DNA from: Romanomermis culicivorax | Taxonomy: Eukaryota > Nematoda > Enoplea > Mermithida > Mermithidae | Assembly: GCA_963922205.1 (NCBI GenBank) | Contig: CAWUHX010000351.1 | Location: forward strand, 1-64,000 | Length of the DNA: 64,000 nucleotides | Direction of reading: 5' to 3' | Part shown: positions 3,265 to 64,000 of the stretch, in pieces | How the letters are laid out: every line of letters begins with the position of its first letter | Position numbering within the stretch: position 1 is the first letter of the stretch | The notes under the pieces: generated by a model | What the model saw: only the letters and a program-made list of their open reading frames with translations | The model's database searches: none | Told to the model about the DNA's origin: nothing | Position numbers and translations under genes: made by a program

Positions 3265-4056
3265 TGTAATGTACATGCTGAAGCATTAATGTAAATACAG
3301 ATTGTACAGTATGTGATATTCATTTATTAAATATAATTTCATTTATTAATCTATCATCTCAAGGGTGTCTGGGATTCACACCCAAATATTCCCATAAATT
3401 TATGTGAAGCACTTTATTTTGATCGTCCCACACCCCATTGACCCAATTAAGACATACATAATTATTTGCACATTGGCACCTGGCCCTCGTAATGCACATG
3501 AAAATATACATTCTATAGGTACAATAATCCCCCCAGACGCGTAAACACACCTGCCCATGTAGAAAATAAAGAAATCCCGACCCAGACAGAAGATTTAGGA
3601 GAAATGCATGGAAAACCGAAAAACACATGAAAAACCAAAAACATATGGGCGCGGCAAAGCATACTGTAGATTAAAGGCATGTAAGCGTGGAAATTAAGAA
3701 TAAATTAAAGCAAGAGGCGTGGCTAAAGAAGCATACAGTAGGCAGAAACAGGTAAGCAAAGCTGCGATTGGTTAGGCGAGCCGACGGAAGCGGACCTCCC
3801 ATGACGCGAGGGCATGGATTGAAGAATCGGTATAAAAGACAGATTTTATGCAGAGATTTGATTGAGATTTTTATTGATTCTGTGAAAGCGTTTATGCGGG
3901 ACGTGTCCTGAAGCATTCTATATTTTGTGTACGTCGACACAAAGAATTGTCGACAAATCGTTATTTATTATTTTACCGTATTCGTATCCCGTCCCGTTTG
4001 TCCGTCGCCCCTTCTTTAGGATCAAGTAAAGTAGAGTAGAGAATCTGGTCGTTACA
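3265..4056 (+). mobile_element. Solo LTR of the element 1 family
   Basis: This 792 bp block begins TGTAATGTACATGCTG and ends GGTCGTTACA. It aligns by eye along its length with the 3' LTR at 17542-18450. Shared landmarks are GTCTGGGATTCACACCCAAA near the left, ACTTTATTTTGATC, a GACCTCCC..GACGC block and a TATA box at 3831. No polypurine tract precedes it and no gag or primer-site sequence follows, so it is read as a solo LTR left by LTR-LTR recombination. The flanking four bases (TGGT and CGGT) are an imperfect target duplication. It is clearly diverged from the element 1 LTR. Confidence 0.8.
3831..3838 (+). promoter_or_regulatory. TATA box of the solo LTR
   Basis: TATAAAAG lies in the same context (AATCGG before it, ACAG after it) as the TATA box of the related LTR at 18137. 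It probably marks the U3 promoter of the family. Confidence 0.55.
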
Positions 4057-8731: not shown

Positions 8732-10164
8732 TGTATCTCTAATCAGCACCTGTGCACTTAAAATACTGCAAAACTTACGGAGGGATGTTTGGCTATGGAT
8801 GTTTGCACTATTAGCACAATAACGATAAATGTCGTATAAATGTTGCAAAATTGTATCATTATTTCCCGAATTCCTTTCCATTAAAAGAAATTATATCCAA
8901 GTTAGATTTTTATACCTCAGCCAGAACAATAATTTTTTGTTCCAAAACGCTACAAATCAATCTATAGATCTCGTCGAGATTTCTCCAGAAGTATGATCGG
9001 TGTATCCCCCTCGATGGAATTAAGGAGAGTTCAGCAACTTACGACCGATTTTTTTTCAAAAAATTTGATGCACGATTCCATTCAGCTAGAATTTTTGTTT
9101 CTAGAACTACTTCGATTTATGCTAAATTTAACCTACTTCGATTTATGCTAATATCTGGGGTTTTGGAATGACCTCATCCGAATATCAATCCGCTAGTTTC
9201 ACATGTGAATGCATGATCTGCAAGAGCGTTACAAAAAGGGCTATATCACTAGAAAATCACTTAGACACCTTAGTTGACAAAGCACAATTTCTAGAAGAAC
9301 ATTGTCTATAGTCACAGGAAATTCAGTATTATAGAATGAGATTAAGTTAGTTAAACCATCCACTACAAATGGACTTTAAAATGTTTTCATTTCGAGTACG
9401 TTAGTGCACCGAATTAGCATACCATTTCCTGACTATAGACACAAATTGATGAACGATGAAAAGTTTTGGAAGAAGGTACAGCCACGCATGTATAAAAAGC
9501 ACGCGTCATGGATTTTGAAAACGTCTCTGTATTGCGTTCAGGATGAAGCGTATTCACAGAATTGTAATTAATGGTCATATACACCGCGTTCTATCAAAGT
9601 TGATATCATCGCAATTCTTACTTTGAATTATCATACCTGTATTTGGGGTTAGAGGGCACCAGATCAATCGTGCCCTGTACCTATTTGTTTATAGCCGCAA
9701 CCTCCAGTTTCCCTAAATCCGGCTCTAATAATTGGGGAAAAACGCTTCTATTGACTTTTTGAAAAATTTTCGAAATTTTCGCCAGAAATTGGGCTCGTTT
9801 CGACTTTTCTAGGTCCATTTTTTTGACCTCCTCTAAAGATTTCAAGATTTTTGAAAAGTTAAATATTCCAAGATGTTTGGATTTACCTCCAATTCAACCC
9901 GATAGCCTCAGTTTGTTCGGCATTTAGCCCCTATACATAGCCTGCCATTCAGTCCTAATTTTGTCCCGCGTTTTGGCCTGCGATTTTACCCTGACTTTAG
10001 CCTGTCATTTGGCTCGAGATTTGCCCCAGGATTTGGCCCGCCAAATAGCCCACGATTTGCCCCGTGATTCGCCCCACACTTTAGCCCACGATTTGCCCTG
10101 CTGTTTTTCTTATACGCTTTAGCCCGCCATTTGCCTCAAGCCCACCTTTCGTCATTCGGCCCTT
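8732..10164. other. Non-coding stretch with a short minisatellite
   Basis: No gene was seen. A duplicated CCTACTTCGATTTATGCTA-like word occurs near 9107-9150, and a GCCCGCGATTTGGCC-like array occupies about 9905-10140. Confidence 0.5.
9905..10140. repeat. Minisatellite, TTTAGCCCGCGATTTGCCC type
   Basis: Degenerate units of about 15 bp alternate GCCC or GCCT with GATTT or CATTT, over roughly 235 bp. Confidence 0.65.
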
Positions 10165-10637: not shown

Positions 10638-13600
10638 ATCAGCCAATCGACGCCCCACACATACGAGCAGTATAAAGTCGCATTACAGGCATTTTTCCCA
10701 AACAATAGAGATAATAAGCTACACCAACAATTCTTACGCGAAAGAAAACAAAAGCGATCAGAAACAGTAACGGAATTCTTATTTGATCTAGAACATCTCG
10801 CAACCCTCGCCTACCCTAACTTTAACACAGACGCACGAGAAATGATCATAAAACCCCTCTTTGTAGAAGGCATGCAAAACGAAATCAGGGAAGCAATTAA
10901 GTATAGAAGGTTTGCAACTCTAAAAGAAATGTCAGACGAAGCAGCTTACATTGAACAGCAAATTCTTAGAAATGAGTTAAAGTCTAACGCCTTTCCCTTT
11001 ATACCCCCAAAACCCGAACCCATCTTTTCCCTAACCCAAAATACAGACCAACAGGATCTTTTGCATCAGTTAGAACAACAAGTAAAAGATTTACAGTTGC
11101 AGATCAAACAAAAACCTCAACCCCCACAACAGAGTAGCTACAACAATTTCAGTAACAATACTTTCAGCAGGAATAATGCTTACAGGAACAATACCACCCC
11201 CAGGCAACCCACATGCTTCCAGTGTGGACAAATCGGACACGTAGCTCGTAATTGTAAATCAGTAGGCACCCGAAAATCATGTGAAATCTGTTTCCGTAAT
11301 AATCACAGTACACGTGATTGTAAAAGCCCATGCATCCACTGCTCCCAAACAGGACATAGATCAGATAACTGCCCTTCAAAACCCTACTCCAATTTCCAAT
11401 GTTTCGCATGCAAGCAGAGAGGTCATACAAGCAGGTATTGTCCAAATCAGCAGAGTTGTAATATTCAAAATTGCATTGAGTACAGGCAACCCCAACCCCT
11501 CATGGACATTGACGACCCCGCATTTTACTCAAAATTACCCGCCATAACTAACGGCCCTCAGACTACTTTAGGAACTATCATGCCCAACACCCACCGCCGT
11601 AGTGACGAATACGTCCTTGATCTGGACGTACCCGATTGGTGCGCCATGTCACCACCCCCCACGCCTGAAGCCGCAAAAATCGAAAAATCGCCGCCCACCA
11701 TCCCCGTAGGCTACAAGATCCCCCGAAAACAAGACACAACGCCGCCCACCGCCCCCGAAACCCCGTCGAAAACAGGCCGCAACTTGTTATCCCTCTTACA
11801 CGGTCTGACCCCTGAACCCTACCAATTTCGCCCCCGCCAAACATTGCTACCGACCCCCGCAAGTAAGCAAGTCCAAACCCCATCCCATAACTCAAATTCC
11901 AAACTTTTACAGAATGTTCAGATTGCAAACCGGCCACCCCCTCAACCCAAAACCGAACAACACCAAGAGCTGCCACGCCAAACCGGCCAGAACGAAAACA
12001 TACAGTGCCCCGCCGCCTCCACTAAAACATTCTATTGGCCGATGTTTTGTATTTTTCTTTGTATAATAATCCCCACATCATGTAGTGCCCAATTTCAGAT
12101 GTGTGGAACTTCATTGAGCGGTCACTCAATCAGCATACCAAAACTTGTATCATGCATGCCCCCTTCCACAGTAGACAAACCCGTACAAACATTCGGAAAA
12201 ATCTATATCCCCTCCACTAAGCCCCACATTACAGATGCATACAAATGCAGTGTTCGTAAATGCAAAATTTGTACTAATACAGGATTTTTTGGATCAAAAG
12301 GTATTGTCTTTGACCAAACCGAAATGCAAAATCTAACCCCACATGTTTGTAAGGCAATCGTTATAGACAAAGAACACAATGGTCAAAAATTATACGAAAC
12401 CCAACCAGGATTTTGGTCAACAAATAACTCCCTAAGCGTAGAATACACATGGTGTTGTACAGACCATTGTACCTCGGTCACTAACGTCATCATAGAAATA
12501 GGACAAATAGCATCTTGGAATGGAAAATCTATGACAGGTACATTAGGCGACCTAGGGTCATGCAAACCGACATCAGGTCATTGTGTCACATCCGACGGAT
12601 CCACTATCTGGAACGAAACAGCATTTGAAAACTTATGCCCCTTCGAATACAAAAATACACACCCCATAAAACTCACGCCAACTCACATGATAATAGAAGA
12701 GCTACAAGGTGCATTTTCGGTTAAAAACACACTCTTTTCAAACCCCAATTGCCCAGAAATCCAAGACAGCATTCTAACCGAACAAGGCATTATTGTACAA
12801 TTAGACAAAAGCACACCACATCGTAACGCATTTTTAACCCCAAAAACCAACGAAACTCATACTACACTATACGATTTTGATGATTTTGAACCCATCAATG
12901 CAAAACTAAACTATCTAGCAGACAAAATACAGGAATTCGAAATTCAAAATTTCAAAAATGTATGGAATGAATTATGCAGACAGGCACAGCGTCACCTTGA
13001 TCTCGTATGGCAAATTTTATGTCTTGATGCAACCCTTGGAGCACGTGCATTCCTACAGCGAACAGACATAATAGCAGAATTCACAGGAGAAGCCCTCACA
13101 GTCTGGCCCTGCAAGCAGGTAAACGCATCCAAAGTCTTTTACAACCATAAAATCAACCAAACATGCTACAAACTTTTGCCCATTCTCGTAGGAACTGAAC
13201 TCATGTTTTCAAATCCAGGTGGCAACGATTTGACCCCTTTCTCACAAACCGTTGACTGCCATCACATGCATGTAGCCCTTTACAAACAGAATAATACATG
13301 GGTAAGTGAAACAGGATCCCCGCATGTCACAAATTTACCTTTAGAAATCGTCTGGAACCAAAATTTCTCCCTTTTCCATTTTAATACACCCGCCATTTTT
13401 CATGATCAACTTGCAACCATTTCAACCAACTTACTCTTTTTGAAACAATACATTTACAAAACTCACACACTCGAAAACATTGTCAAAAAACTCGTCAATT
13501 ACACCGCCCAAATGTCTCTCAATTCTGATACAGTTTACAACATGATCTCAGGCACTGGTCAAGCACTCGGAAATACACTCTCTGGCGCCGGTCAAGGCAT

Positions 13601-16600
13601 AGAACATGTAATAACCGGTAACACCCAAAGTCTCACGGACGGATTAAACAATTTACTCAAAGGACCCCTGCAAATCATTATCAATCTCGCCGTTATTACT
13701 GTAGTTATTGCAGGCGTCTTTTATTTGTTTCTCGTTCTTCGAAAATATTTCCCCTCTCCAAAGCATCATGCCACAAACGAACATGCATACGAAATACCAT
13801 CAAACAACAGACATTTACATGAGACCATACCCCCATCATTCGGCCATGCTCTCTTAGAATTAGCTAATCGTCGTGGGGCACAAACGCAGCAGAAATACGT
13901 CCTTGTCGATATTGATACCCCCCGAACTCCTGCAATCGAACTCATCAATCAAATTCAGCAATCCGCATCAAACAAGCCACCCCAGAATGTACCTGAGAAA
14001 CATACCCCTCATATCCCAATCACACTTAACGGCAAATTAATGACAAAAGGCATGATTGACACTGGTGCAGTTTACTCACTCATTGATTCCCGAATCGCTC
14101 AACTTTTACAGTTAGACATGAAACCCCCGCTGGTCCAAGCAAAAGCAGCAAATAATCTTCCGATTCACTTTGTAGGGACCACTTTTGTCTCAGTGACTGC
14201 CCAAACAATCCAGGAAACAATCATGGTCCATGTACAAAAAGATTGCACAGCCGACATCCTTCTAGGCAAAAACTTTCTCAGTCGATTTTCGGAATACACT
14301 ATCAACAATCAAAAATCACAGGTCAAATTTGGCAATGTCATACTACCTTGTGATGGCCTAGAATATAGCCCTCTTTCAACTCGTGGTGGAACTTATTTGG
14401 ATGAGAAATTAGAATTACCACCCCGTACAGTAACCGAATTTACTGTCCCCTTGCCCAAATCGTACCTACAGGTCAAACAGCTTGAATTCACCCCGAAACC
14501 CAAACAGAATCCCAAAGTCCATTTCGCAGCTTGTATCTCGGAAAATCAAAACAGTCGCATACGCATATCCGTCCTAAACACACAAGAAACAGCTCAAATT
14601 CTTTATCCTGGAACATGCATTGGCACAGTCTCTTGTTACATCCCAAAACAAAATGCTCCCGCTAATCTAACCCCTTCAACGCAAAACCAGCCCAGCCGCT
14701 TTGATACATTCACATGGTTAAAAGAAAATGTCAATTTAACCTCCAGTGACCTCACAGAAGCAGAAAAAACGCAACTCCTACGCGCCCTATCGAAGTACCC
14801 TACATTATATGCTAAATCCAAAATGGACGTAGGTAGAACCACCCTCGTTTCACATACAATTGACACCAATGGCTCCCAACCCGTACGTAGACAACTTTAT
14901 CGGACTTCCCCAAAAGAAAAACAAATCATACAAGCAGAAGTTGAGCAACTCGCAGCAGCAGGTGTCATAAGCCAAAGCAATTCCCCATGGTGTACCAACA
15001 CAGTTTTAGTCCCCAAAAAAGATGGAGGCCATCGTTTATGCATTGATTTTAGAGGCCTCAACAAAGTCACCAAAAAAGATACCTACCCCTTACCCCGTAT
15101 AGACGAAATTCTAGACACCCTCCGTGGAATGAAATATTTCACCTCCCTTGACCAATCCAATGCATACTATTCCATTCCCATAGCACAAGCAGACAGAGAA
15201 AAAACGGCCTTTAATTGCTCAGCTGGCCAGTATCAATTCAATTACCTCCCCTTTGGACTCACCAATGCCCCAGCCACATTCCAAAGGTTAATGGATGTTA
15301 TTCTTTCGGGTCTGCAATGGAACACATGCCTTGTGTATCTCGACGATGTTTTGGTATTCGCAGACTCCCATGCCCAGATGCTGGAACGTTTAGACACTAT
15401 TCTTGCCCGATTCTCACAAGCAGGCCTTAAGCTAAACATACAAAAATGCAAGTTCTGCCAGCCCCAAGTCCAATACTTAGGCCACGTCATTTCTCAGCAA
15501 GGCATTTCACCAGACCCCCATAAGGTACAGGCCATTTATGACATACCCACGCCCAAAAGCTCAAAAGAAGTTAAGTCATTCCTTGGCCTACCCTCATATT
15601 ATCGCAGATTCATCCCAAATTGCTCTCAAGTTTCTAGCCCACTCACATCGCTACTCAAAAAGAACTCAGAATTTTCCTGGGGCCCCGAACAGCAAAGTGC
15701 ATTCACTAAGCTCAAAGAATTACTCATCCATGCCCCAATACTACAGCACCCCGATTTCACAAAACCGTTTATTCTGCAAACCGACGCCTCAAAACACGGA
15801 ATCGGCGCCATTCTCAGCCAGCTGGATAGTAAAGGTCAGGATCGCCCCATTGCTTTTGGGAGCCGCACATTGAAACCCGCAGAACGCAACTATCCGATCA
15901 CTGAGTTAGAAACCCTTGCAGTAGTCGAATTTGTCAAGTATTTCCGCCCCTATCTTTTCCAGCAACATGTTATCGTACACACTGACCACACAGCACTTCA
16001 GGCAGTCTTACAAAAGGAAAACCCGTCCCCTCGCATTGCCCGTTGGGGATTAGCCCTCTCTGGTATTCAACTCGACATTCGACCTAAGAAAGGCACTGCT
16101 AACCGCAACGCAGATGCAGTTTCCCGATTCCCCTCACAGACAGCAAAGCAATTCTTTGATATTGAGCAATTAGAAACCCGCCCCGAAATATCAACTATCA
16201 ATTCAGTTTTGGAAGCCGAAGCAACTGAACAAGAAGAGCAACAGAAAAACTTCGCCGAACTCCAACGCACTGACCCAACTGTCAAGAGTATTTTAGCAAA
16301 AATCGCCCAAAAAAACCCCCTTACCCTTATCAAATTTGCAGTGCATCAAAACATTCTCTTCCGTATAGTCGACAAACAGGCAAAACTATACATTCCCAAG
16401 TCGCAAGTCCAGCATCTCATCGCCTCACATCATGACAGCAAATTCACAGGCCATTTTGCGGCCAGGAAAACTTTACACTTGCTCAGACAGAAATATTTTT
16501 GGCCCCAAATGAGCCGTGATATCAAACGTTACTGCAAAACTTGTCACCCATGCCAGACACAGAAAGCTCTTAGGCACAAAGTACATGCAAACCTGGTACC

Positions 16601-17510
16601 AATTCAGCCGACTGGCCCATTTGATCGAGTCGGTGTTGATTGCATGGGACCATTACCCCTCACTGAAGACGGCAACCGATTCATTGTCGTTTTCATCGAT
16701 TATTTCACAAAGTATGTAGAGGCATTCCCGACCCCTGACATCACTGCAGCCACTATTGCCAAGCTATTCGTAACCAAAATTGTTTGTCGTCATGGGTCCC
16801 CAAAAATCATCCATTGTGATCGTGGCACCGATTTCATATCCGATCTTTTCTCACGGATCACCAGTTTATGCAATACTCAGAAAATTCACACTACCCCATA
16901 TCATCCCATTGCCAATGGGGAAGTTGAGCGTTGCAACCAAACCCTAGCCACCCGTATCCGCATGTACATCAATTCAAATCACACTGATTGGGATACTTAT
17001 CTCCCATATGCTGTTTTTTCGATCAACATCCATAAAAATGATAGCACATCATATCCCCCATTTGAATTACTCCACGGTAGACAAGCTAATCTGCCATCAG
17101 ACGCAGCCTTAAACTTTTTCCCCACGTCCTACATGGTTGATTTAGACGATTACGCCCTTCGTGTAAAATCGCATTTCACAGAAGCACTCTCAACCGTGCA
17201 GAAAAGTTTGCAAAAAGCCCAAGCCCACTATACCCGTCAGTATAACAAACATGCTCAGAACATACATTACAAGGCAGGTGATCTTATTCTATACAAAAAT
17301 CATTCGTGTAAACAAGGGCTGACTCCCAAATTCCTCCCTCGCCAAAACGGACCCTATACAGTCACACATTTCATGTACCCCAACGTTACACTCAAACACC
17401 CCCATAAGAATATTACATTTACGGTGCATGTAAATGAGACAACCCCCTTCTACCCTCGGAAAGCAACTATCGAATCTACCCCCACCCTTCCTCAACCTCG
17501 AAAGCCTTGA
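10638..17510 (+). CDS. Gag-Env-like-Pro-RT-RNaseH-IN polyprotein
   Basis: The frame is open from 10638 to TGA 17508-17510 (2290 codons); the first ATG is at 10842, inside gag, because the true start is missing. Residues counted from that ATG: four CCHC zinc knuckles at 125-138, 147-160, 164-177 and 187-200; a proline-rich linker; a hydrophobic signal-like run at about 397-416; a cysteine-rich ectodomain; a membrane anchor at about 945-967; aspartic protease with DTGA at 1073 and ILLGKNFL later; RT with LDQSNAYY (Asp 1437) and YLDD at 1499-1502; RNase H with QTDASKHG (Asp 1648). Integrase has an HHCC finger from 1863, Asp 1933, Asp 1993 and Glu 2029 (D,D35E spacing), then a GPY/F motif. All catalytic residues looked for are present. 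The coding strand is A/C-rich and G-poor. No chromodomain was seen. Confidence 0.95.
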   Translation: MSQSTPHTYEQYKVALQAFFPNNRDNKLHQQFLRERKQKRSETVTEFLFDLEHLATLAYPNFNTDAREMIIKPLFVEGMQNEIREAIKYRRFATLKEMSDEAAYIEQQILRNELKSNAFPFIPPKPEPIFSLTQNTDQQDLLHQLEQQVKDLQLQIKQKPQPPQQSSYNNFSNNTFSRNNAYRNNTTPRQPTCFQCGQIGHVARNCKSVGTRKSCEICFRNNHSTRDCKSPCIHCSQTGHRSDNCPSKPYSNFQCFACKQRGHTSRYCPNQQSCNIQNCIEYRQPQPLMDIDDPAFYSKLPAITNGPQTTLGTIMPNTHRRSDEYVLDLDVPDWCAMSPPPTPEAAKIEKSPPTIPVGYKIPRKQDTTPPTAPETPSKTGRNLLSLLHGLTPEPYQFRPRQTLLPTPASKQVQTPSHNSNSKLLQNVQIANRPPPQPKTEQHQELPRQTGQNENIQCPAASTKTFYWPMFCIFLCIIIPTSCSAQFQMCGTSLSGHSISIPKLVSCMPPSTVDKPVQTFGKIYIPSTKPHITDAYKCSVRKCKICTNTGFFGSKGIVFDQTEMQNLTPHVCKAIVIDKEHNGQKLYETQPGFWSTNNSLSVEYTWCCTDHCTSVTNVIIEIGQIASWNGKSMTGTLGDLGSCKPTSGHCVTSDGSTIWNETAFENLCPFEYKNTHPIKLTPTHMIIEELQGAFSVKNTLFSNPNCPEIQDSILTEQGIIVQLDKSTPHRNAFLTPKTNETHTTLYDFDDFEPINAKLNYLADKIQEFEIQNFKNVWNELCRQAQRHLDLVWQILCLDATLGARAFLQRTDIIAEFTGEALTVWPCKQVNASKVFYNHKINQTCYKLLPILVGTELMFSNPGGNDLTPFSQTVDCHHMHVALYKQNNTWVSETGSPHVTNLPLEIVWNQNFSLFHFNTPAIFHDQLATISTNLLFLKQYIYKTHTLENIVKKLVNYTAQMSLNSDTVYNMISGTGQALGNTLSGAGQGIEHVITGNTQSLTDGLNNLLKGPLQIIINLAVITVVIAGVFYLFLVLRKYFPSPKHHATNEHAYEIPSNNRHLHETIPPSFGHALLELANRRGAQTQQKYVLVDIDTPRTPAIELINQIQQSASNKPPQNVPEKHTPHIPITLNGKLMTKGMIDTGAVYSLIDSRIAQLLQLDMKPPLVQAKAANNLPIHFVGTTFVSVTAQTIQETIMVHVQKDCTADILLGKNFLSRFSEYTINNQKSQVKFGNVILPCDGLEYSPLSTRGGTYLDEKLELPPRTVTEFTVPLPKSYLQVKQLEFTPKPKQNPKVHFAACISENQNSRIRISVLNTQETAQILYPGTCIGTVSCYIPKQNAPANLTPSTQNQPSRFDTFTWLKENVNLTSSDLTEAEKTQLLRALSKYPTLYAKSKMDVGRTTLVSHTIDTNGSQPVRRQLYRTSPKEKQIIQAEVEQLAAAGVISQSNSPWCTNTVLVPKKDGGHRLCIDFRGLNKVTKKDTYPLPRIDEILDTLRGMKYFTSLDQSNAYYSIPIAQADREKTAFNCSAGQYQFNYLPFGLTNAPATFQRLMDVILSGLQWNTCLVYLDDVLVFADSHAQMLERLDTILARFSQAGLKLNIQKCKFCQPQVQYLGHVISQQGISPDPHKVQAIYDIPTPKSSKEVKSFLGLPSYYRRFIPNCSQVSSPLTSLLKKNSEFSWGPEQQSAFTKLKELLIHAPILQHPDFTKPFILQTDASKHGIGAILSQLDSKGQDRPIAFGSRTLKPAERNYPITELETLAVVEFVKYFRPYLFQQHVIVHTDHTALQAVLQKENPSPRIARWGLALSGIQLDIRPKKGTANRNADAVSRFPSQTAKQFFDIEQLETRPEISTINSVLEAEATEQEEQQKNFAELQRTDPTVKSILAKIAQKNPLTLIKFAVHQNILFRIVDKQAKLYIPKSQVQHLIASHHDSKFTGHFAARKTLHLLRQKYFWPQMSRDIKRYCKTCHPCQTQKALRHKVHANLVPIQPTGPFDRVGVDCMGPLPLTEDGNRFIVVFIDYFTKYVEAFPTPDITAATIAKLFVTKIVCRHGSPKIIHCDRGTDFISDLFSRITSLCNTQKIHTTPYHPIANGEVERCNQTLATRIRMYINSNHTDWDTYLPYAVFSINIHKNDSTSYPPFELLHGRQANLPSDAALNFFPTSYMVDLDDYALRVKSHFTEALSTVQKSLQKAQAHYTRQYNKHAQNIHYKAGDLILYKNHSCKQGLTPKFLPRQNGPYTVTHFMYPNVTLKHPHKNITFTVHVNETTPFYPRKATIESTPTLPQPRKP
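12030..13860 (+). CDS. Envelope-like glycoprotein region inside element 1
   Basis: This is the part of the polyprotein between the zinc knuckles and protease. It starts with a hydrophobic stretch (12030-12092) that looks like an internal signal peptide. A roughly 520-residue ectodomain follows, with many cysteines and eight N-glycosylation sequons (for example NNS, NET, NAS, NQT, NFS, NYT). A single anchor lies at about 13674-13742, then a basic LRKYF and a tail containing GHALLELA. Element 2 has a clear homologue in the same place, sharing CGTS, GHSI.IPK, TICTNTGFFGSKGI-like and GARAFLQRT motifs. I infer a virus-derived envelope or fusion protein. I cannot assign the family: chuvirus/mononegavirus-like, phlebovirus Gc-like and baculovirus F-like origins all need testing. 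Confidence 0.7.
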
Positions 17511-17528: not shown

Positions 17529-17541
17529 GGAAGGAGGGAAA
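17529..17541 (+). promoter_or_regulatory. Polypurine tract of element 1
   Basis: A 13-base purine run, GGAAGGAGGGAAA, directly abuts the TG of the 3' LTR. This is the expected plus-strand primer. Similar tracts precede the LTRs of elements 2 and 3. Confidence 0.85.
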
Positions 17542-18450
17542 TGTAACGTACCTGCTAAAGCAGTACTGTAAATATGTAGCATACTGTATGTAATAGACAT
17601 TTATTAGATATTATTTTATTTTCACATTTTATCGTCTCAAGGATGTCTGGGATTCACACCCAAACATTCCTACAAAATTACGTGAAGTACTTTATTTTGA
17701 TCCGTTCACACCCCGGTAGCCCAATTAAGACGCCCTAATTAATTTGCACAAACGGCAGCTGTTCCCCTAGAACCCACACTAAACTACACATTCCACAGCT
17801 ACCGTAATCCCCAGTAAAAATCGTAAACAACACCTGCACACAGTAAAATGCGTAGAAGCCCCGCCGTACAGTAGTCTCAAGTGTAACGGTAGCGGCGGCC
17901 CCACAAAACATGTGTATACAGAGAAACCGATACAGGAAGCATGCACAGAAGCACAAAGGTGTGGCCAAGCCCACCGTAGAAAGCAAGCGAAGCACAGAAA
18001 GCATACAGTACCAGAAAAGCATTAGAGAGGCGTAACTAAGTAAGCATAAAAAGCGTAGCAGGAAACGACGATTGGCGGAAGAAGATGGACAGAAGCTCGA
18101 CCTCCCGCGACGCCCAGGGAGTGGCCAGAATCGCCGTATAAAAGAAGAAGCAAAGCGTGATTTGATCATTCTTATTCTTGTGGTTTTTTTTCCGTTTTGA
18201 CTTCCGCGCTCGCCCCGTCCTTTTTATACATTTGCAAGCGGCCGACTATTCGAAAGCAACTTAAACCGAGGCCCCCGTCCGTATTTTAACTCGAAGCGCG
18301 TTTATTGTCGACGTTCAAGCGACCGTCGATTGTTCGTATTATCGCCCCGTATTTGTAATCGTACGCCCGCGCCCCCGTCCCATTATTTGTCCCCGCCGTA
18401 TCGACCGATTGGTTAGAAGTAAAGTACCTCACACAAATCTGGTCGTTACA
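17542..18450 (+). repeat. 3' LTR of element 1
   Basis: This 909 bp LTR begins TGTAACGTACC and ends GGTCGTTACA, so TGTAACG/CGTTACA form the short inverted ends. It contains a TATA box at 18137 in the same context as in the solo LTR. The ORF on its minus strand is a shadow. There is no matching 5' LTR in the window apart from the diverged solo LTR at 3265. Confidence 0.88.
18137..18144 (+). promoter_or_regulatory. TATA box of the element 1 LTR
   Basis: TATAAAAG lies about 300 bp before the LTR end, placing U3 to its left. The context is shared with the solo LTR at 3831. Confidence 0.55.
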
Positions 18451-21307: not shown

Positions 21308-42016
<20,709 letters not shown>

Positions 42017-53916: not shown

Positions 53917-54098
53917 CATATTTATTATACACCACGTTAATTTTTTAGGTAATAGATGATTCACTATTTTACATAATTTTCGAATATCTGAAAACAATGT
54001 GTAATTGCGTTATTACAATATTTTATTCATTAAAAATAACACCTTTATGAACCGGTGGAACGACAACAACTCTGCGTATGCTCATGCATAATAGACTA

Positions 54099-54926
54099 TG
54101 TCACGAGGAGTGACAAAAATGTAAAGTTATGAAAAATTATGTTATGTACATTTTCTGCAAATTCTCGTCATGTTTTCCTCCAAAAAATTCCGGTTAAAAC
54201 CTGTTTTTGTACAGCTATTTTTCGTCTGTTGAAATTACGAGTAATATGCACTCAAGCACACTAATTATCGTAATTATGCACACTTCAATGGAAACGTTGG
54301 CGACATCTCAAAGACACTAATTACTGACACTTGCATAACAGGGCTAATTGTGGCGCCCTGTGGATTTCAGAACCTACAGTAATCCAAGTCTGGTCCGCGC
54401 CAACCACTGTGGATGTTTTTTGATGTTAATTCAAGTCTGGTCCGCGCCGACCACTGTGAATGTTTTGCATGTCAATTTAAGTCTGGTCCGCATCGACCAC
54501 TGTGGGTTTTTCATGTCTGAAATGAGGGTCAAGTGGGTCTGAAACGAAGAAGAAGACCCTGTTTTGACAAAGATAGTCAGTCTTGTTTTTTCGCGTCAAC
54601 CCCAATGGTGGAATCCCGCGCCGGATTCCATCGATAACCAGTCTTTGGTTTTTGCGTCGACCCCAGCAGTTGAATCCTGCGCCGGATTCTGTCAGTAATT
54701 TTGCCTTACGAGAATCGTCCCGCGACTGGACCATTATTTCGTTTTGTGCATTTTCACACCGAGCTTTACGTTGTGTAATTTCGCGCCTGTTTTACATTTG
54801 CGTTTTTGCACCGGTTTTACATTTCGTATCAAACCAACGTTTGTACGAAGGTTGTAAGTTGTAGATTAGTAAAGTCGAAAACCCAACTTGCTTAGGTACA
54901 CATCAACCCTTACAGTAACCCTGACA
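54099..54926 (+). repeat. 5' LTR of element 2
   Basis: It begins TGTCACGAGGAGTGACA and ends CAGTAACCCTGACA. Internally it has three GTCTGGTCCGCGCCAACCAC-like repeats and two AATCCCGCGCCGGATTC repeats. Confidence 0.95.
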
Positions 54927-54932
54927 TAAATG

Positions 54933-54945
54933 TGGTGACCTAATA
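54933..54945 (+). other. Possible primer-binding site of element 2
   Basis: TGGTGACCTAATA starts six bases after the 5' LTR, beginning with the TGG expected to pair with a tRNA CCA end. The tRNA is not identified. Confidence 0.35.
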
Positions 54946-55139
54946 ACAGGGGGACCCAGAAACTTTTTCTTTAGCCTTATCCAAACAAAAATTCATACAA
55001 TTCTTGGTCAAATCTTTTTTTTTCTCTTCCAAAAATTTCATCAAAACAGTCAGGTCGGTATACTGCAACTAAAGAAACATTGTGTGACGTCTTTAAACGC
55101 ATCGAGCGTGAAACTAGGGAACAAACCCTCAAGGAAAAA

Positions 55140-56567
55140 ATGCCTCATCAGGACCAAGTTATAGACCCATTGGGACATGTAGTTCAGGATGCTGTCGCCA
55201 CTGTTTTGGATGGGCGTCTGTGGGAGCTCGAAGCTCAAATTGCACGAAAAGTGTCCACTACTGAAGCGGGTCTGAATGAGTTAAGAATTGGACATCTTAG
55301 GAGCGAAATGTCCACAAAAAATCGCGATTTTCCACATTTCACTGGTAGGCCCTCTGAAAATTTCGAAGAATGGGCCAAGAAGCTTGAAAAACAAATGCTT
55401 TTAAAGGGGCTCAGAGCTGATGATGATGCCCTCAAGCTTATATTTTTGGAATTCCACTTGGATGGGGACGCCTTGGTAAAATTCGAAAATATTTCCAACT
55501 CCCCTAATCCTCCTGAGACGTACGATCAATTTAAACGGGCTCTGCTGGACGCCTTCCCTGTTGTTCAAGACACCCTGTTTCATCCTCAAATCTTGAGGGA
55601 TCGAAAACAAAAACGAACTGAAACAGTAATGGCTTTCTTTAACGAACTCAAAAAATTGGGTCGACTTGCCTATCCTAATTTTGAACTAGCTTTACGGGAG
55701 AATTTAATTGAACCCGTTTTCCGTGAGGGTCTGTTGAGTGATATTCAAAGCGTTATCAAGTACAAACAGTACCCTGATTTAGCTGCCCTCGTTTCTCAAG
55801 CCGTATTCATAGAACGACAAATGTTGCAGGATGAAGCCAAGCTGAGCCAAAAGTTTGACAAAATTTTGGATGAACTTTGAAATCACGGTAAAAATGAAAA
55901 ACAGAAGCATTCAGATCACGGTGTCACATGCTATAAATGTGGGAGAAAGGGGCATTATGCTAATACTTGCAAGAAAGCCTCTGACTCCCCTACAGTTCCT
56001 ACGGGTTCTTCGTGTTCTATTTGTAGTCAAGAAGGCCATGTGGCCTCTGAGTGTAAATCAAAATGTCACTTTTGTAAAAAAGTGGGACATAAGCACAATA
56101 AGTGCCCTACCATAGAATGTAGGAAATGTAAACACAAAGGGCATTTGGAAAAATATTGCCCCCAAAAGTATGGTCAGAATCACAATAATGGGTTATCTAT
56201 CAATCTTCTCGATAGTGACGACCCTGGAATGACCACTTTAAATCATTGTTCTGTCACAGGTCTGGTCATGTCACTAGCATACAACCCCGACTGCAGTAAC
56301 GACGAGACGGAAAATCTGGCATGGCCAGCATCCATTCCGCCAACGCCCAAACCAAGCGAGCCCATGTCTGAAGGCTTGTTAAGCGAGGGCGAGATCGAAC
56401 AGGTAGCTGCTGAAAAACTGACCTTGCCCAAAGACTATAAAATTCCGAAAAAGGGCAAAACCGACGTTCGCCCTGGATCCGACAGGCCCCCTGTCTTCGA
56501 CAGACTTGGTGAGAGGCTTGAAGCTCAAGAAAGTTATCTGCCCCATAAAAGGGCTTTTTCTTCATAA
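55140..56567 (+). pseudogene. Gag of element 2, with an in-frame stop
   Basis: The first ATG in frame is 55140; the frame also runs upstream to 55080 without ATG. Capsid-like sequence (FTGRPSENFEEWAKKLEKQM, then RDRKQKRTETV) leads to TGA at 55878-55880. The same frame continues at once into four CCHC knuckles (CYKCGRKGHYANTC, CSICSQEGHVASEC, CHFCKKVGHKHNKC, CRKCKHKGHLEKYC) and an acidic, proline-rich tail to a stop at 56565-56567. It matches element 1 over its 3' two thirds. The single TGA between capsid and nucleocapsid may be decay or readthrough. Confidence 0.85.
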
Positions 56568-56863
56568 CAGGGTATAATGGCAATCAGCGGTATTGCCGCT
56601 GCCCAAGGTGCAGGCAGGCTCGGACAGCCCGGAGAAGAAAACGTCGAAGTCGCACCCGAAACCTCAAGGGCCAAGGAAACTCATCGACCGGCCCAAGGAG
56701 CCCTCAACAGGGCCATCGACAAAATGGGCCACAGTTCTTCTTTTCTCCTACAAAGGGCCACAACGAAAATCGTGGCCAGGGGAAAAGAATGCGTGGAAAC
56801 CGTCCAAACTGGGGCCGACGCCCCTATTGAAAAGGCCACCACCGCCCATATGTTTTCTTTAAG

Positions 56864-58873
56864 ATGTGTGTATATTTTTTTACCATTTTCTTGGGCGTAA
56901 ATAAAGTTTCACCACTTCAAATTTGTGGAACCTCTCAAAATGGTCACTCAATCGAAATTCCTAAAACTGTTTTGTGTGTTAGACCCATGGTGGGTGATAA
57001 ACCCCTGACAACTATGGGTAAGCTTTTCGTACCTCGTGGGCACCCTAAGCTATCTCCAGCATTCAAGTGTAGCATCAGAACTCGAACAATTTGTACAAAT
57101 ACGGGATTTTTCGGTTCCAAAGGTATTGTGGGTGATGATACAAAACTTGCAACACTCACCCCTTTTGAATGAAAAACTTTTTGGTATTCAAAACTTTACA
57201 AGGGTCAAACTTTGAACGAGACCCTTCCGAACTTTTGGTCAACTGCAAATATGCTCAGTGTCGAATATAGGTGGTGTTGCAATGACCATTGCAGTTCCAT
57301 TGAGAATTTAATCATTGAGGAAGGGCAAGTGGCCTCCTGGGATAATTCGAATCTGCTGAGCACCCTTGGTGATCTTGGGGGCTGCAAACCCAGTTCAGGC
57401 CACTGTGTTGCATTAGACGGAGTGGTTGTTTGGAATGAAACGACCCTTGAATCTATATGCCCTTTTGAGTACAAAGACAGTTATATTGTGAAGCAAACAG
57501 GTCATCCTATCATCGTTAATGACCTGCAAGCTGCGTTTTTTGTTAAAAGATCAAATTTTCCTCACAAAAATTGCCCTAATATCACAAATGGGCTACTCAC
57601 CGAACAAGGTGTTGTGATCGAGATCAATCAAACCCTTGTAGAGATGGAGGGTCAGAATTCTCCACCTGTATTTGATCTAACAGATTCTGACCCCATCAAT
57701 GCCAAACTAAACTATTTGGCATTGAAAATGATTGATTTTGAAATGCAAAGCTTTCGAAACTTGTGGAGTGAACTATGTAGGCAGGCCCAATGCCATTTGG
57801 ATCTTGTATGGCAATTTTTACATCTAGACCCCACTCTGGGAGCAAGGGCTTTCCTCCAACGGACCAACATTATTGCTCAGTTCACGGGTGAGGCCATAAC
57901 AATTTGGCTGTGCAGGCAAGTGAAGGCCTCTCGAATTTACAAGAATCATAAAATCAATGGTACCTGTTATGAACATATGGGGGTCTTACTGGGAAATGAC
58001 TTGATGTTTGTTTCCCCAGGAGGTGTGGATCTCCTACCCTTTAGCCAAAGGGTGGATTGCAACCATCAGCCAATTCACCCTTACAAAATCAACCAAACTT
58101 GGCAAACAGAAATGGGTCCTATTCACGTCAGTAAGGTACCCTTAGAAGTCGTTTGGCAGGGAAACTTCTCAATCTTCAACTTCAAATCTCCGCCAATATT
58201 TCATGGTCAGTTGGCAGCAGTTTCAACTAGCCTATTGTTTTTGAAAAGCTATATGTTTCGGATCCATGATTTGGAACTTGTGGTCAAAAGACTAGTCAAT
58301 TATACCTCAGAAATGTCCCTTCACTCAGGGACAGTGTACGAATTTCTGGCTGGGTCCGGACAAGCAATCGGTAATAGCATTTCAGGGGCTGGTCAAGCCC
58401 TTGAACACGTGATTGTTGGGTCGCATCAAAGCATGACCCAAGGACTTAATAATTTGCTGAAAGGACCCTTGCAGATGTTGGTAAACTTGGCTGTCCTAAT
58501 AGCTTTTGTGGTTGGAGTTAGCTACTGGGTCTCTCGATGTGCTAAAAGACCCAGGCAATTGCCGAGGTATGAGCAGCCGAGGAATCGAATTGCTCCTCCC
58601 ATTACTCCTACCCTTGGGCAGGCCCTCTTGGAGTTGGCCAGTCTGAGGAATTCGGAAACCCAAAATAAATACATTATGGTGCCAAATCCACAGGCCCCTA
58701 GTGCCCCTTTGATGGAATGGGTGAATAATGCTACCCATGTGAGCGGCGAAAATCAAAGAACGCCCCATATTATGGTTAGGGTAAACAAAAACGTTACCGC
58801 CAATGCTATGGTAGACTGCGGGGCCACATTTACCTTAGTCGACAAACGAGTCATTGATCAATTGGGTTATTAA
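56864..58873 (+). pseudogene. Envelope-like glycoprotein and start of protease, element 2
   Basis: The frame differs from gag and starts at its own ATG (56864) with a short hydrophobic leader. The ectodomain continues past a single TGA at 57170-57172. It has many cysteines and N-glycosylation sequons (NET, NQT, NGT, NFS, NYT, NIT), the GARAFLQRTNIIAQFTGEA block, and an anchor around 58465-58530 (LAVLIAFVVGVSYWV). A GQALLELA tail follows, then the protease start with DCGA in place of DTGA. A frameshift near 58865 ends this frame. It is homologous along its length to element 1 12093-14100. Confidence 0.8.
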
Positions 58874-59708
58874 AATTGAACCCACAAATATGACCCCTAT
58901 AGCTGCCAACAACATGAGCATTCATGTTTTGGGTGCAGTTTATCTCACAATTGAAGTTGGTGCTATCAACGAAACAGTCACAGCACTAGTTCAAGAAAAC
59001 TGTGCTGTGGACCTTTTACTGGGGTCAAATTTCTTGTTTCCCTTCAAACAGTGGGCTATAAACAAGGAGAAATCATATGTGAAATTGGAAAATGAAATTG
59101 TACCCTGCACGGGAGTTAAATATCATTCGTTACGCCACCGAGGCGGCATTTACATGAATGAACGGGTCATTCTTACCCCAAGAAGTGTGACTGAATTCTC
59201 GGTCCCTGTTTCAAATCTTTACAGGAATGAGACTATGGACCAATTCTCCACTGAACCAAATGTGGCAGAAAAACTACACGTATGTTTTGCTGCCACTGTG
59301 AGTCCAGTCATTGACCACAACCTGCGGGTTTCAGTAATGAACCCCTTGAACTCAGAAGTCACACTGTATCCAAACATGTGCATTGGTTCCGTGGTTCGTT
59401 ACGTGGCAACCAAAAAAGAAGCATACAATGGTAATCTAGATGGGTCAGTCAAGGAGAAAGCCATAAAAGAATGGTTGAACCAAACGGTAGATTTGTCTGG
59501 TTCTGACCTTACAGATACGGAAAAGCAACTTCTTTTGGATCTGCTGACTAAATATCCAACCTTATACACCAAATTGTACAATTATCTCAACTCGTCCATC
59601 CATCAACAGTTGGAAATCGGCTGGCAACAAATGGCGCCGTCTATACAACCGACTCACATCCAAAAAAAATTGACGTCTGGACTGCGAACGAGGACGTCTG
59701 CTTTTTGA
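58854..59708 (+). pseudogene. Protease second half and linker, truncated before RT
   Basis: It continues the protease in a new frame after the 58865 shift (VDLLLGSNFL matches ILLGKNFL of element 1). It then runs through the pre-RT linker to LLTKYPTLYTK. A further frame change leaves a remnant resembling the pre-RT RRLYNRLTSKK segment. Then the pol deletion joins directly to the 3' terminal sequence. TGA is at 59706-59708. Confidence 0.8.
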
Positions 59709-59718
59709 AGGATGGGAA
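59707..59718 (+). promoter_or_regulatory. Polypurine tract of element 2
   Basis: GAAGGATGGGAA abuts the 3' LTR. It is interrupted by one T compared with element 1. Confidence 0.75.
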
Positions 59719-60546
59719 TGTCACGAGGAGTGACAAAAATGTAAAGTTATGAAAAATTATGTTGTGTACATTTTCTGCAAATTCTCGTCATGTTTTCCTC
59801 CAAAAAATTCCGGTTAAAACCTGTTTTTGTACAGCTATTTTTCGTCTGTTGAAATTACGAGTAATATGCACTCAAGCACACTAATTATCGTAATTATGCA
59901 CACTTCAATGGAAACGTTGGCGACATCTCAAAGACACTAATTACTGACACTTGCATAACAGGGCTAATTGTGGCGCCCTGTGGATTTCAGAACCTACAGT
60001 AATCCAAGTCTGGTCCGCGCCAACCACTGTGGATGTTTTTTGATGTTAATTCAAGTCTGGTCCGCGCCGACCACTGTGAATGTTTTGCATGTCAATTTAA
60101 GTCTGGTCCGCGTCGACCACTGTGGGTTTTTCATGTCTGAAATGAGGGTCAAGTGGGTCTGAAACGAAGAAGAAGACCCTGTTTTGACAAAGATAGTCAG
60201 TCTTGTTTTTTCGCGTCAACCCCAATGGTGGAATCCCGCGCCGGATTCCATCGATAACCAGTCTTTGGTTTTTGCGTCGACCCCAGCAGTTGAATCCCGC
60301 GCCGGATTCTGTCAGTAATTTTGCCTTACGAGAATCGTCCCGCAACTGGACCATTATTTCGTTTTGTGCATTTTCACACCGAGCTTTACGTTGTGTAATT
60401 TCGCGCCTGTTTTACATTTGCGTTTTTGCATCAGTTTTACATTTCGTATCAAACCAACGTTTGTACGAAGGTTGTAAGTTGTAGATTAGTAAAGTCGAAA
60501 ACCCAACTTGCTTAGGTACACATCAACCCTTACAGTAACCCTGACA
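59719..60546 (+). repeat. 3' LTR of element 2
   Basis: It is 828 bp, the same length and ends as the 5' LTR, with about six substitutions seen by eye and no indels needed. Confidence 0.95.
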
Positions 60547-62550: not shown

Positions 62551-62562
62551 TTCCCCTCCTTA
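62551..62562 (-). promoter_or_regulatory. Polypurine tract of element 3
   Basis: TAAGGAGGGGAA on the minus strand abuts the LTR. Its first three bases are the stop codon of the integrase frame. Confidence 0.8.
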
Positions 62563-63999
62563 CAAAGGCGAACGCCCTCGGTCGCAACCTTCTCCCATGG
62601 TTTTGACGCCGTGCCGACTAAAGCAATGACGCCAAATCGAGCCGACTGATTGTTGATGATGTCTGACACGTTTGACGTTGCTGGACCGGTTAGATGATGT
62701 GGTACGATGGACGGCAGAGATGCGGGGATGGAACCGGACAGTGTCATTAACATGCAATTTGTAAAGTTTCCGTGTATCCGGGTGCTCGATTTCGACATTT
62801 GGATATGCAACTTTGACGACTTTGTACGGTCCATGCTGCTGCGAGATTAGCTTAGGACTCTGATTTTTACGAACGAGTCTAGTTTTCCGAAGGATTAGAT
62901 CTCCAGTTTGATATTGTACATTGTGTGATTTTTTGTTGTACTGTTCTGAGTACCGATTTTGTGAAGCCAACAGGGTGGCCTGTACGTTTTCAAATGCTTT
63001 TGACAAGTGATTTTTTATTTCGTTGGCATATTCGCTGAGATCAACCATATAGGGTGACTTTTTGAAACTGAATGCTGCATCAGATGGCAGCAAGGGTTGT
63101 CGCCCATACACGAGTTGGAAAGGTGAATAACCCGTGCTTTCATTTTTATGAACATTTGTAGAAAATACCGCGAAGGGAAGATAATCATCCCAATCTGAAT
63201 GATTTTCATTCACGTACATGCGAATACGGGTAACGAGGGTTTGATTGCACCTTTCTACTTCTCCATTACCCATCGGATGATAGGGGGTAGTGTGTACTTT
63301 TTCTGTGTTGCATAACTTTGTAATATTTGTAAAAAGTTGTGATGTGAAATCGGAAGCCCTGTCACAATGAAGGATTCTTGGGGCTCCATGATGACAAACG
63401 ATTTTTTCGACAAAAAGAGAAGCGATGGTCTGTGACGTTATGTTAGGGGTAGCAAAGGCTTCCACGTATTTAGTAAAATAGTCGATGAAAACTACAACAT
63501 AACGGTTTCCATTGCTGGAAATGGGGAGAGGACCCATGCAGTCCAATCCCACTCGCTCAAATGGTTGTGAAGCCCGAACTGGAACCAAATCGGCTTTGAT
63601 CGCATGTCTAGTGGGCTTGTTGAATTGGCACTTTTGACAAGTTTGGCAATATTCTTCCACAAATTTCCGCATTTGAGGCCAAAAGTATCGTTGTCGCACA
63701 TTTTCATAAGTTTTCCGGGAGGAAAAATGGCCTGCAAATTTGCTATCGTGATGCGATTTTAGGATTTCCGGGCGGAATGATTTTGGAACGTAGATTTTAT
63801 ATTCATTTTCGAATTTCCGGTATAACAGATTATTTTGGATGATGTAAACGTCGTTTATTTTTGCATCTGGACCCTTATTAATTTCATTGATGATTTGTCG
63901 TGTGTCAGGGTCAGAAAGTTGAAGTTCCGCTAAGTTTTTGATTATCTCCTGATTTTCGTCAATTTCATCCTCAAGCCCATATCCAAGGGCAAGGATTCT
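62560..63999 (-). CDS. Integrase end of element 3 Pol (partial)
   Basis: The frame is open from the window edge (codon 63999-63997) to TAA 62562-62560, about 479 codons. In order: a linker after RNase H; an HHCC zinc finger (HHDSKFAGHF, then CQTCQKC); and the catalytic core with Asp 63543-63541 (GLDCMGPLP), Asp 63363-63361 (HCDRASDF) and Glu 63255-63253 (GEVERCNQ), with D,D35E spacing. A GPY/F motif (QQHGPYKVVKVAYPN) and a basic tail follow. No stop or frameshift is seen in this part, so the element may be intact. It would insert the element's DNA copy into chromosomes. Confidence 0.93.
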   Translation of the reverse strand, partial: RILALGYGLEDEIDENQEIIKNLAELQLSDPDTRQIINEINKGPDAKINDVYIIQNNLLYRKFENEYKIYVPKSFRPEILKSHHDSKFAGHFSSRKTYENVRQRYFWPQMRKFVEEYCQTCQKCQFNKPTRHAIKADLVPVRASQPFERVGLDCMGPLPISSNGNRYVVVFIDYFTKYVEAFATPNITSQTIASLFVEKIVCHHGAPRILHCDRASDFTSQLFTNITKLCNTEKVHTTPYHPMGNGEVERCNQTLVTRIRMYVNENHSDWDDYLPFAVFSTNVHKNESTGYSPFQLVYGRQPLLPSDAAFSFKKSPYMVDLSEYANEIKNHLSKAFENVQATLLASQNRYSEQYNKKSHNVQYQTGDLILRKTRLVRKNQSPKLISQQHGPYKVVKVAYPNVEIEHPDTRKLYKLHVNDTVRFHPRISAVHRTTSSNRSSNVKRVRHHQQSVGSIWRHCFSRHGVKTMGEGCDRGRSPL

Positions 64000-64000
64000 G

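What the first reader, a model, noticed from the sequence alone, without database searches (positions are those of the whole stretch)
10638..17510. Envelope-like gene lies between gag and protease in one open polyprotein
Seen directly: a single 2290-codon frame with Gag zinc knuckles, a signal-like run, a cysteine-rich ectodomain with eight sequons, one anchor, and then protease, RT, RNase H and integrase. Known retroviruses and errantiviruses place env after pol. Here the topology would still work: Gag cytosolic, ectodomain lumenal, Pol cytosolic. This may be an undescribed class of env-bearing Ty3/gypsy element.
Basis: partly seen in the sequence, partly recalled or inferred. Interest (0 to 1): 0.88.

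Follow-up and report, generated by a model that had tools for sequence, protein, structure and literature searches.

The report
Envelope gene inside a Gag-Pol frame
In what appears to be a mosquito-parasitic roundworm, several families of virus-like jumping genes carry their cell-entry protein gene in the middle of the genome, between the shell and enzyme genes, instead of at the end, and seem to use a tiny removable RNA segment to choose between making shell protein alone and the whole chain.

Summary
Window 10638-17510 is one open frame (2290 codons) with Gag zinc knuckles, signal peptide, a class III-like fusion glycoprotein (Pfam Monjiviricetes_fusion, 3e-18), one anchor, then PR-RT-RNase H-IN. 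The copy is 5'-truncated and has a 3' LTR. It belongs to a young Ty3/gypsy family: 74 or more places, LTRs 884-910 bp with 0-10 mismatches, mostly 4-bp target duplications. The order is kept in diverged families, one in this window, one overlapping its end, others genome-wide (env 53-75% identical to the second family); 72 of 80 places run in frame from env well into PR. Assembly size and scaffold count match Romanomermis culicivorax v2, a mermithid nematode.

New here: before the signal peptide sits a 50-62-nt intron-like stretch. Its removal shifts Gag into a basic tail that stops just before Env. In three family pairs that tail is conserved in exactly this frame; pairs with family 1 or B show no such signal. 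Best model: unspliced RNA gives Gag-Env-Pol, spliced RNA gives Gag. BARE1 of barley offers a precedent for the switch. The listings I saw show no such gene order, but the main catalogue of such elements was not readable. No RNA or protein data.

The parts
10653..12035 (+). Gag, 5'-truncated in this copy (capsid end, zinc knuckles, linker)
   Evidence: homology to full copies starts at 10653; Gag of full copy L017 matches Retrotrans_gag 1.1e-5 and, below cut-off, Ty3_capsid 2.7e-4
11211..11438 (+). zinc knuckles of Gag (four CCHC-like by eye, three stretches by Pfam)
   Evidence: zf-CCHC 7.2e-10; translation
11863..11912 (+). candidate 50-nt mini-intron GTAAGC...TTTTACAG
11913..12025 (+). candidate second Gag exon in the shifted frame: basic tail ending at TAA 12023-12025
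12036..12092 (+). signal peptide of Env, in frame with Gag when unspliced
   Evidence: hydrophobic run, translation
12093..13859 (+).
12846..13388 (+). Monjiviricetes_fusion (PF24664) match, 3e-18
13650..13751 (+). membrane anchor
   Evidence: hydropathy
14016..14285 (+). aspartic protease
   Evidence: gag-asp_proteas 6.6e-9
15009..15491 (+). reverse transcriptase
   Evidence: RVT_1; PDB Ty3-G Gag-Pol 4.2e-76
15678..16061 (+). RNase H
   Evidence: RT_RNaseH_2 4e-39
16392..16907 (+). integrase (H2C2 and rve)
17529..17541 (+). polypurine tract GGAAGGAGGGAAA
   Evidence: same sequence before the 3' LTR in 10 of 10 copies
17542..18450 (+). 3' LTR TGTAAC...GTTACA
54098..60546 (+). second family, internally deleted copy: LTR 54098-54926 and 59718-60546, gag 55140-56231, env 56915-58633 (broken), start of PR and RT, rest of pol missing
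56509..56570 (+). candidate 62-nt mini-intron of the second family in this copy
   Evidence: read by eye; relatives with open frames
62695..63975 (-). integrase region of a third family; its RT, PR, env and gag continue beyond the window (L049)

Best explanation
This is a group of Ty3/gypsy-type (Metaviridae) LTR elements, endogenous and recently active in a genome that matches a mermithid nematode, whose order is gag - env - PR - RT - RNase H - IN in one open frame. Env is a class III-like fusion glycoprotein of the chuvirus/mononegavirus/gB kind. Unspliced RNA is read as a single Gag-Env-Pol chain: Gag stays in the cytosol, the internal signal peptide puts Env into the ER lumen, the anchor returns the chain, and PR-RT-RH-IN fold in the cytosol; signal peptidase and the element's own protease would cut it. 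A 50-62-nt mini-intron just before the signal peptide acts as the Gag/Gag-Env-Pol switch: when it is spliced out, Gag moves into a short Arg/Lys-rich tail and stops right before Env, giving Gag in excess. Shown: order, domains, recency, open frames, intron-like signals, a shifted-frame tail conserved among three families. Inferred: splicing itself, polyprotein translation and processing, membrane fusion, infectivity.
For: Order: 74 of 74 scored places hold the full env at 97-100%. With an env+PR-start query, 74 of 80 places pass the env/pol border and 72 of 80 reach residue 549 or beyond, well into PR; 25 of 80 lie in a frame of 2000 aa or more with no stop inside the match, in four env identity groups (my counts from the table). 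Gag-env-pol pieces lie in that order in the second and third families. Env: PF24664 3e-18; BDV_G 0.0017 and gB 0.02, both below cut-off. Recency: 9 of 9 complete LTR pairs differ at 0-10 positions (0-12 gap columns); 8 of 9 have a 4-bp duplication by my reading. Constraint: env pN/pS 0.056 (8 copies), pol 0.047 (10 copies). Intron: GT...AG at 50 nt in 39 of 39 family-1 loci read, 38 distinct copies. In 38 aligned loci 0 of 14 splice-motif columns vary against a third of flanking columns. Copies of four families with an open unspliced frame: 50, 62, 62, 56 nt, all 2 mod 3, same phase. Shifted-frame tails: F2/F3 84, F2/F70 107, F3/F70 60, each the best of nine frame pairings and reached by 0 of 500 shuffles; polyprotein-frame pairings F2/F3 17 and F3/F70 18 do not stand out. 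Family-1 pN/pS after the acceptor: 0.85 unspliced, 0.49 spliced, 2.04 third frame; before the donor 0.13 (18 loci, 17 copies).
Against: No RNA, ribosome or protein data. Pairs with family 1 or family B show no significant shifted-frame similarity (5 of 8 pairs). F2/F70 also score 42-44 in two other frame pairings (0-1 of 500 shuffles), and in an earlier broken-copy comparison one other F2/F3 pairing also beat the shuffles (46). Donors of F3 (GTAAAA) and FB (GTAATG) are weak: the donor scan did not list them and I picked them afterwards at the R-L-G position. The F70 copy is broken (4 stops, 63-nt stretch), so its frames are uncertain. Family-1 copies are close relatives, so their conservation is partly shared ancestry. 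The intron-pair pattern alone is not rare in 64 kb (2 matches, 0.54 expected, 9 of 100 shuffles as many). Three of 38 family-1 loci enter the tail only through local frame changes. One of nine places fetched (L057) has no linker or intron. Structure predictions failed (pLDDT 35). No furin-like site. Copies for pN/pS were chosen by protein match or frame length, which lowers pN.
Confidence: 0.68

Rival explanations
1. Same element, but Env is made separately: from a spliced env mRNA or by internal initiation, and the unspliced frame mainly serves Pol; or the same donor joins a distant acceptor at the env/pol border so that Env is itself an intron of a Gag-Pol mRNA.
For: In family 1 an AG at 13857 or 13863 is in phase with the donor, introns of 1995 or 2001 nt. 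The second AG is present in 8 of 8 copies compared. Retroviruses make Env from a separate spliced mRNA (PMC10309623 passage).
Against: The AG at 13857 is lost in L004 (1 of 8 copies) and in L041. In the second family's window copy the five pyrimidine-preceded AGs nearest the border (58621-58743) are all out of phase with its donor. Copies of four families keep Gag and Env in one frame across the linker, which a separate env mRNA would not need. In 11 of 18 loci the signal peptide has no Met of its own, though in-frame Mets lie further upstream in the linker.
Confidence: 0.2
2. The shifted-frame tail is reached by -1 ribosomal frameshifting, not splicing.
For: The tail lies in the -1 frame relative to Gag/Env; frameshifting between gag and pol is a common strategy (PMC3735527 passage).
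Against: The shifted frame has stops inside the intron-like stretch in the copies of families 1, 2, 3 and B read, so the shift would have to occur between the last of these and the acceptor. Interiors are not alike between families (363 and 430 of 500 shuffles as good for F2/F70 and F2/F3) while exon 2 is (6 and 0 of 500); exon 1 only weakly (19 and 32 of 500).
Confidence: 0.1
3. Env no longer serves infection but anchors an intracellular particle or serves another membrane step; the element is a retrotransposon with a membrane domain.
For: No infection data; near-identical copies known from one genome only.
Against: Strong constraint over all four quarters of Env (pN/pS 0.025-0.147); the second family's Env keeps 8 sequons and 13 cysteines in the part read.
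Confidence: 0.2
4. One-off insertion of a viral glycoprotein into one element, or an assembly artefact.
For: None found.
Against: Dozens of full places and several diverged families.
Confidence: 0.01

Closest known systems
Dingle, Ty3/gypsy element of the annelid Dimorphilus gyrociliatus (PMC7854359; passages read)
   Same: Ty3/gypsy LTR element with an Env likened to herpesvirus glycoprotein B
   Different: there the protein lies downstream of the integrase; here env is between Gag and PR
Anakin, BEL/Pao element with chuvirus glycoprotein in mosquitoes (PMC7642597; passages read)
   Same: captured chuvirus-type glycoprotein in an LTR element with young copies
   Different: BEL/Pao pol; its passages place the Env-like genes of Roo, Tas and Cer-7 downstream of the polyprotein and do not state Anakin's own order in words that I saw; no mini-intron in those passages
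Errantivirus (gypsy and relatives) and the metazoan catalogue of Chary and Hayashi 2025 (not held; cited in passages of PMC13172572)
   Same: env-carrying Ty3/gypsy elements
   Different: errantivirus env is likened to baculovirus env (PMC12440569 passage) and follows pol (recalled); the catalogue itself could not be checked
BARE1 of barley, Ty1/copia (PMC3735527; passages read)
   Same: single gag-pol frame in which a small alternative intron (104 nt) near the end of gag shifts the frame and stops after Gag, shown with RNA
   Different: Ty1/copia, and no env is mentioned in the passages; here the stretch is 50-62 nt, the tail is 34-85 residues long in the families with an open frame and conserved among three families, and no RNA is shown
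Cer1 of C. elegans (PMC10309623; passages read)
   Same: nematode Ty3/gypsy element without a stop between gag and pol, with regulated splicing
   Different: extra ORF lies after pol, does not resemble an Env, and is spliced to give the RNA-export protein CERV

Membership tests
Metaviridae (Ty3/gypsy) | pol order PR-RT-RNase H-IN | tested here: met
Metaviridae (Ty3/gypsy) | RT closest to Ty3 | tested here: met
   best of 12 PDB sequences listed is Transposon Ty3-G Gag-Pol, 4.2e-76; no tree built
Metaviridae (Ty3/gypsy) | LTRs with TG...CA ends and short target duplications | tested here: met
   TGTAAC...GTTACA, 4 bp in 8 of 9; 4-6 bp and TG/CA as criterion from PMC12440569 abstract
Errantivirus | env after pol | tested here: not met
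   criterion recalled
Errantivirus | integrase lacks the GPY/F module | tested here: not met
   NGPYTV seen by eye; criterion from a passage of PMC12440569
Errantivirus | baculovirus F-like Env | tested here: not met
   Env matches PF24664; the three Pfam families listed up to E 1 include no F protein
BEL/Pao with captured Env (Anakin type) | BEL/Pao-type pol | tested here: inconclusive
   Ty3-G is the best PDB match, but no BEL/Pao sequence was compared
Class III (gB / VSV-G-like) fusion proteins | sequence profile of the family | tested here: met
   PF24664 3e-18 over residues 252-432, above cut-off; that PF24664 is class III is recalled
Class III (gB / VSV-G-like) fusion proteins | fold | tested here: inconclusive
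   models at pLDDT 35; not searched further
Splicing-controlled Gag (BARE1-like strategy) | alternative intron at the end of gag whose removal stops translation after Gag | tested here: inconclusive
   sequence signature present in copies of four families; RNA not tested
Infectious retrovirus | extracellular infectious particles | not testable with these tools
   no experiment

The most novel reading that the evidence does not exclude
A distinct lineage of endogenous nematode retroviruses with gag-env-pol order, in which Env is translated inside the Gag-Pol chain and a mini-intron doubles as the Gag stop signal, with two proteins read from overlapping frames of the same linker DNA. Every copy of the Gag-Env-Pol precursor would then carry its own entry protein, tying Env and Pol in equal amounts to each particle.
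Probability: 0.55. Interest if true: 0.88.

Novelty: new variant of a known kind. Interest (0 to 1): 0.8.

Why it matters
In the passages that I read, retroviruses and env-bearing LTR elements keep env or the env-like gene after pol, and retroviruses make it from a separate RNA. A lineage with env in the middle of one frame would show that a membrane glycoprotein can sit inside a Gag-Pol precursor, offers another way to acquire env, and gives a test case for how Gag, Env and Pol amounts are balanced. The mini-intron gives a precise prediction that existing RNA reads of R. culicivorax could confirm or refute.

Tried and rejected
Rejected: one-off insertion or assembly error. Not favoured: env excised as a large intron, since one of two family-1 acceptors is lost in some copies and the nearest AGs of the second family are out of phase; not excluded. 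Led nowhere: IMG/VR scans and one GTDB scan found no relative; the homologue search for longer Gag-Env proteins scored 7995 candidates, none significant; the env profile search gave the same three fragments as before; PDB sequence searches with Env gave no match or only three weak unrelated ones; structure predictions were too poor for a fold search. The first env pN/pS was wrong because loci on the other strand had not been turned; one search replaces it. The linker and signal-peptide values (0.80, 0.71) were taken without alignment; one search replaces the first. mislabels the F2 offset. In one search the 'unspliced' control for F2/F70 is not valid, because the broken F70 copy reads its tail in that frame; one search gives all nine pairings instead. 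For these mends I lowered confidence from 0.70 to 0.68. Not done: pol tree, primer tRNA, survey of env-less relatives, COX1 check of the host.

Full report
What is there. The stretch 10638-17510 is one uninterrupted frame (2290 codons stop to stop). [quoted passage not shown] Env has 9 sequons and 18 cysteines. A polypurine tract and a 3' LTR of 909 bp follow. The copy lost its 5' LTR and Gag start; homology to the three full copies compared begins at 10653.

The middle region is a viral glycoprotein. Pfam gives Monjiviricetes_fusion at 3e-18 over residues 252-432, with matches below cut-off to Borna virus G (0.0017) and herpesvirus gB (0.02). The protein searches returned three fragments: one from Romanomermis culicivorax (53%) and two from metagenome sources (38-39%). 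Two structure predictions were too poor to use, so the fold is inferred from sequence only.

The host. The window lies in an assembly of 359,112,060 bases in 595 contigs. The published R. culicivorax v2 assembly has 359.1 Mb and 595 scaffolds (PMC10879605, passages). I infer the host from that match and from the Romanomermis hit; COX1 could not be tested.

A young family. With the Env piece as query, 74 of 74 scored places hold all 589 residues at 97-100% identity, one with a stop; by my count 48 of the 74 lie in frames of 2000 aa or more (the tool calls its counts lower bounds). Ten copies were read in separate upstream and downstream pieces. Nine have two complete LTRs, 884-910 bp, with 0-10 mismatches and 0-12 gap columns; by my reading 8 of these 9 have a 4-bp target duplication and one (L021/L022) does not; the tenth runs off its contig. 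In all 10 the frame from a Gag start codon to Env is open, 602-604 codons. Env pN/pS is 0.056 among 8 copies and pol 0.047 among 10; copies were chosen for good match or long frame, which biases these values down.

The order is kept in diverged relatives. Window 54098-60546 holds a second family (Env 54%, Gag 32% identical) with gag, env and PR in the same order; this copy is internally deleted and broken. A third family starts at 62695-63975 on the minus strand and continues beyond the window: gag (36%), env (50-55%), PR-RT-IN (45-70%) again in that order, also broken. A search with the second family's Env plus PR start gave 80 places. By identity to that query they fall at 81-100, 70-75, 59-60, 55-57 and 53-54%; 74 of the 80 pass residue 474, the env/pol border, 72 reach residue 549 or beyond, and 6 end before the border; 25 of 80 lie in frames of 2000 aa or more without a stop inside the match (my counts). 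I saw no copy with env after pol, but env-less or env-last relatives were not surveyed.

The mini-intron in family 1. Window 11863-11912 reads GTAAGC...TTTTACAG, 50 nt. It is present in 39 of 39 loci read: 18, 20, one; these are 38 distinct copies, since L008 and L027 are one copy, and L047/L048 have identical linkers. In the 38 loci aligned none of the 14 splice-motif columns varies, while a third of the columns on either side do (rough chance 0.003, ignoring ancestry). With the weights I used, it is the only donor-like site shared by 10 of 10 copies between the end of the 5' LTR and Env. As a bare pattern it is not rare in 64 kb. Leaving it out shifts the frame; the new frame ends at TAA just before the Env signal peptide. 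In 35 of 38 loci the tail is in that frame from its first residues; 3 of 38 reach it through local frame changes. The unspliced frame is open after the acceptor in 38 of 38.

The same design in other families. Short linker stretches were fetched from nine further places. Copies of families 2, 3 and B with open frames have a GT...CAG stretch of 62, 62 and 56 nt, in the same codon phase as family 1, after R-L-G; removal always shifts by the same amount, and the shifted frame gives a basic tail (Arg+Lys 23-38%, Asp+Glu 1-3%, family 1 included) that stops before the signal peptide. The donors of families 3 and B (GTAAAA, GTAATG) are weak and were chosen after seeing the R-L-G position; the scan had not listed them. 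A broken '70%' copy (4 stops) has a 63-nt stretch and the same kind of tail. Comparing all nine frame pairings after the acceptor, the shifted frames are the best for F2/F3 (84), F2/F70 (107) and F3/F70 (60), each reached by 0 of 500 shuffles; the polyprotein-frame pairings score 17 (311 of 500) for F2/F3 and 18 (262 of 500) for F3/F70, and for F2/F70 two other pairings also stand out (42 and 44). The five pairs with family 1 or family B show no significant shifted-frame similarity. One place of the nine (L057) has no linker or intron. Intron interiors are not alike between families, while exon 2 is for F2/F3 (0 of 500) and F2/F70 (6 of 500) and not for the two pairs with FB. The stretches are richer in T and poorer in G+C than their flanks in 5 of 5.

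Reading frames under constraint. In family 1 the polyprotein frame before the donor has pN/pS 0.13. After the acceptor it is 0.85 in the polyprotein frame, 0.49 in the spliced frame and 2.04 in the third (18 loci, 42-43 codons). So the DNA after the acceptor seems kept as protein mainly in the spliced frame, and merely kept open in the other. The numbers of changes are small and the loci are related.

How it probably works. Unspliced RNA is both genome and messenger for Gag-Env-Pol. The internal signal peptide and the anchor put Env on the outside and leave Gag and Pol in the cytosol. Spliced RNA makes Gag with a basic tail, probably for RNA binding, in excess. This is inference from sequence. 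Splicing as a Gag stop has a demonstrated precedent in BARE1 of barley, where a 104-nt intron shifts the frame and stops after Gag (PMC3735527, passages).

What is known. [quoted passage not shown] Searches for env between gag and pol, gag-env-pol, and class III Env in gypsy elements showed nothing with this order in the titles and abstract starts listed; most of these listings are a small part of the papers that matched. Chary and Hayashi 2025, the main catalogue, was not held, so novelty of the order is provisional.

Verdict. The finding is real and stronger than stated. It is a new variant of a known kind: an env-bearing Ty3/gypsy lineage with an unusual gene order and a predicted splicing switch.

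Noticed in passing
window 54098-60546: A second env-bearing family, with LTRs 99.3% identical (6 mismatches in 829) but most of pol deleted: a young non-autonomous copy.
   Followed up: yes
window 62560-64000 (minus) and L049: A third env-bearing family overlapping the window end; its Env is split between two frames in this copy.
   Followed up: partly
L057 (G000:C26:340939-341689): A diverged relative in which the zinc knuckles run almost straight into the signal peptide, with no linker and no mini-intron.
   Followed up: no
L047 and L048 (G000:C26, about 8.4 kb apart): Two family-1 places with identical linkers close together: a tandem arrangement, recombinant or assembly duplicate.
   Followed up: no
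window 3265-3557: A fragment about 75% identical to the family-1 LTR.
   Followed up: no
window 9900-10150: Degenerate repeats of the type GCCCGNNATTTGCCC just upstream of the truncated element, seen by eye.
   Followed up: no
L013:1978-1990: An acceptor-like TTTCCTACAG in the leader upstream of the Gag start, possibly relevant to trans-splicing.
   Followed up: no
window 28550-29107 (minus): Likely exon of a P-type cation ATPase gene (Cation_ATPase 1.1e-6).
   Followed up: no
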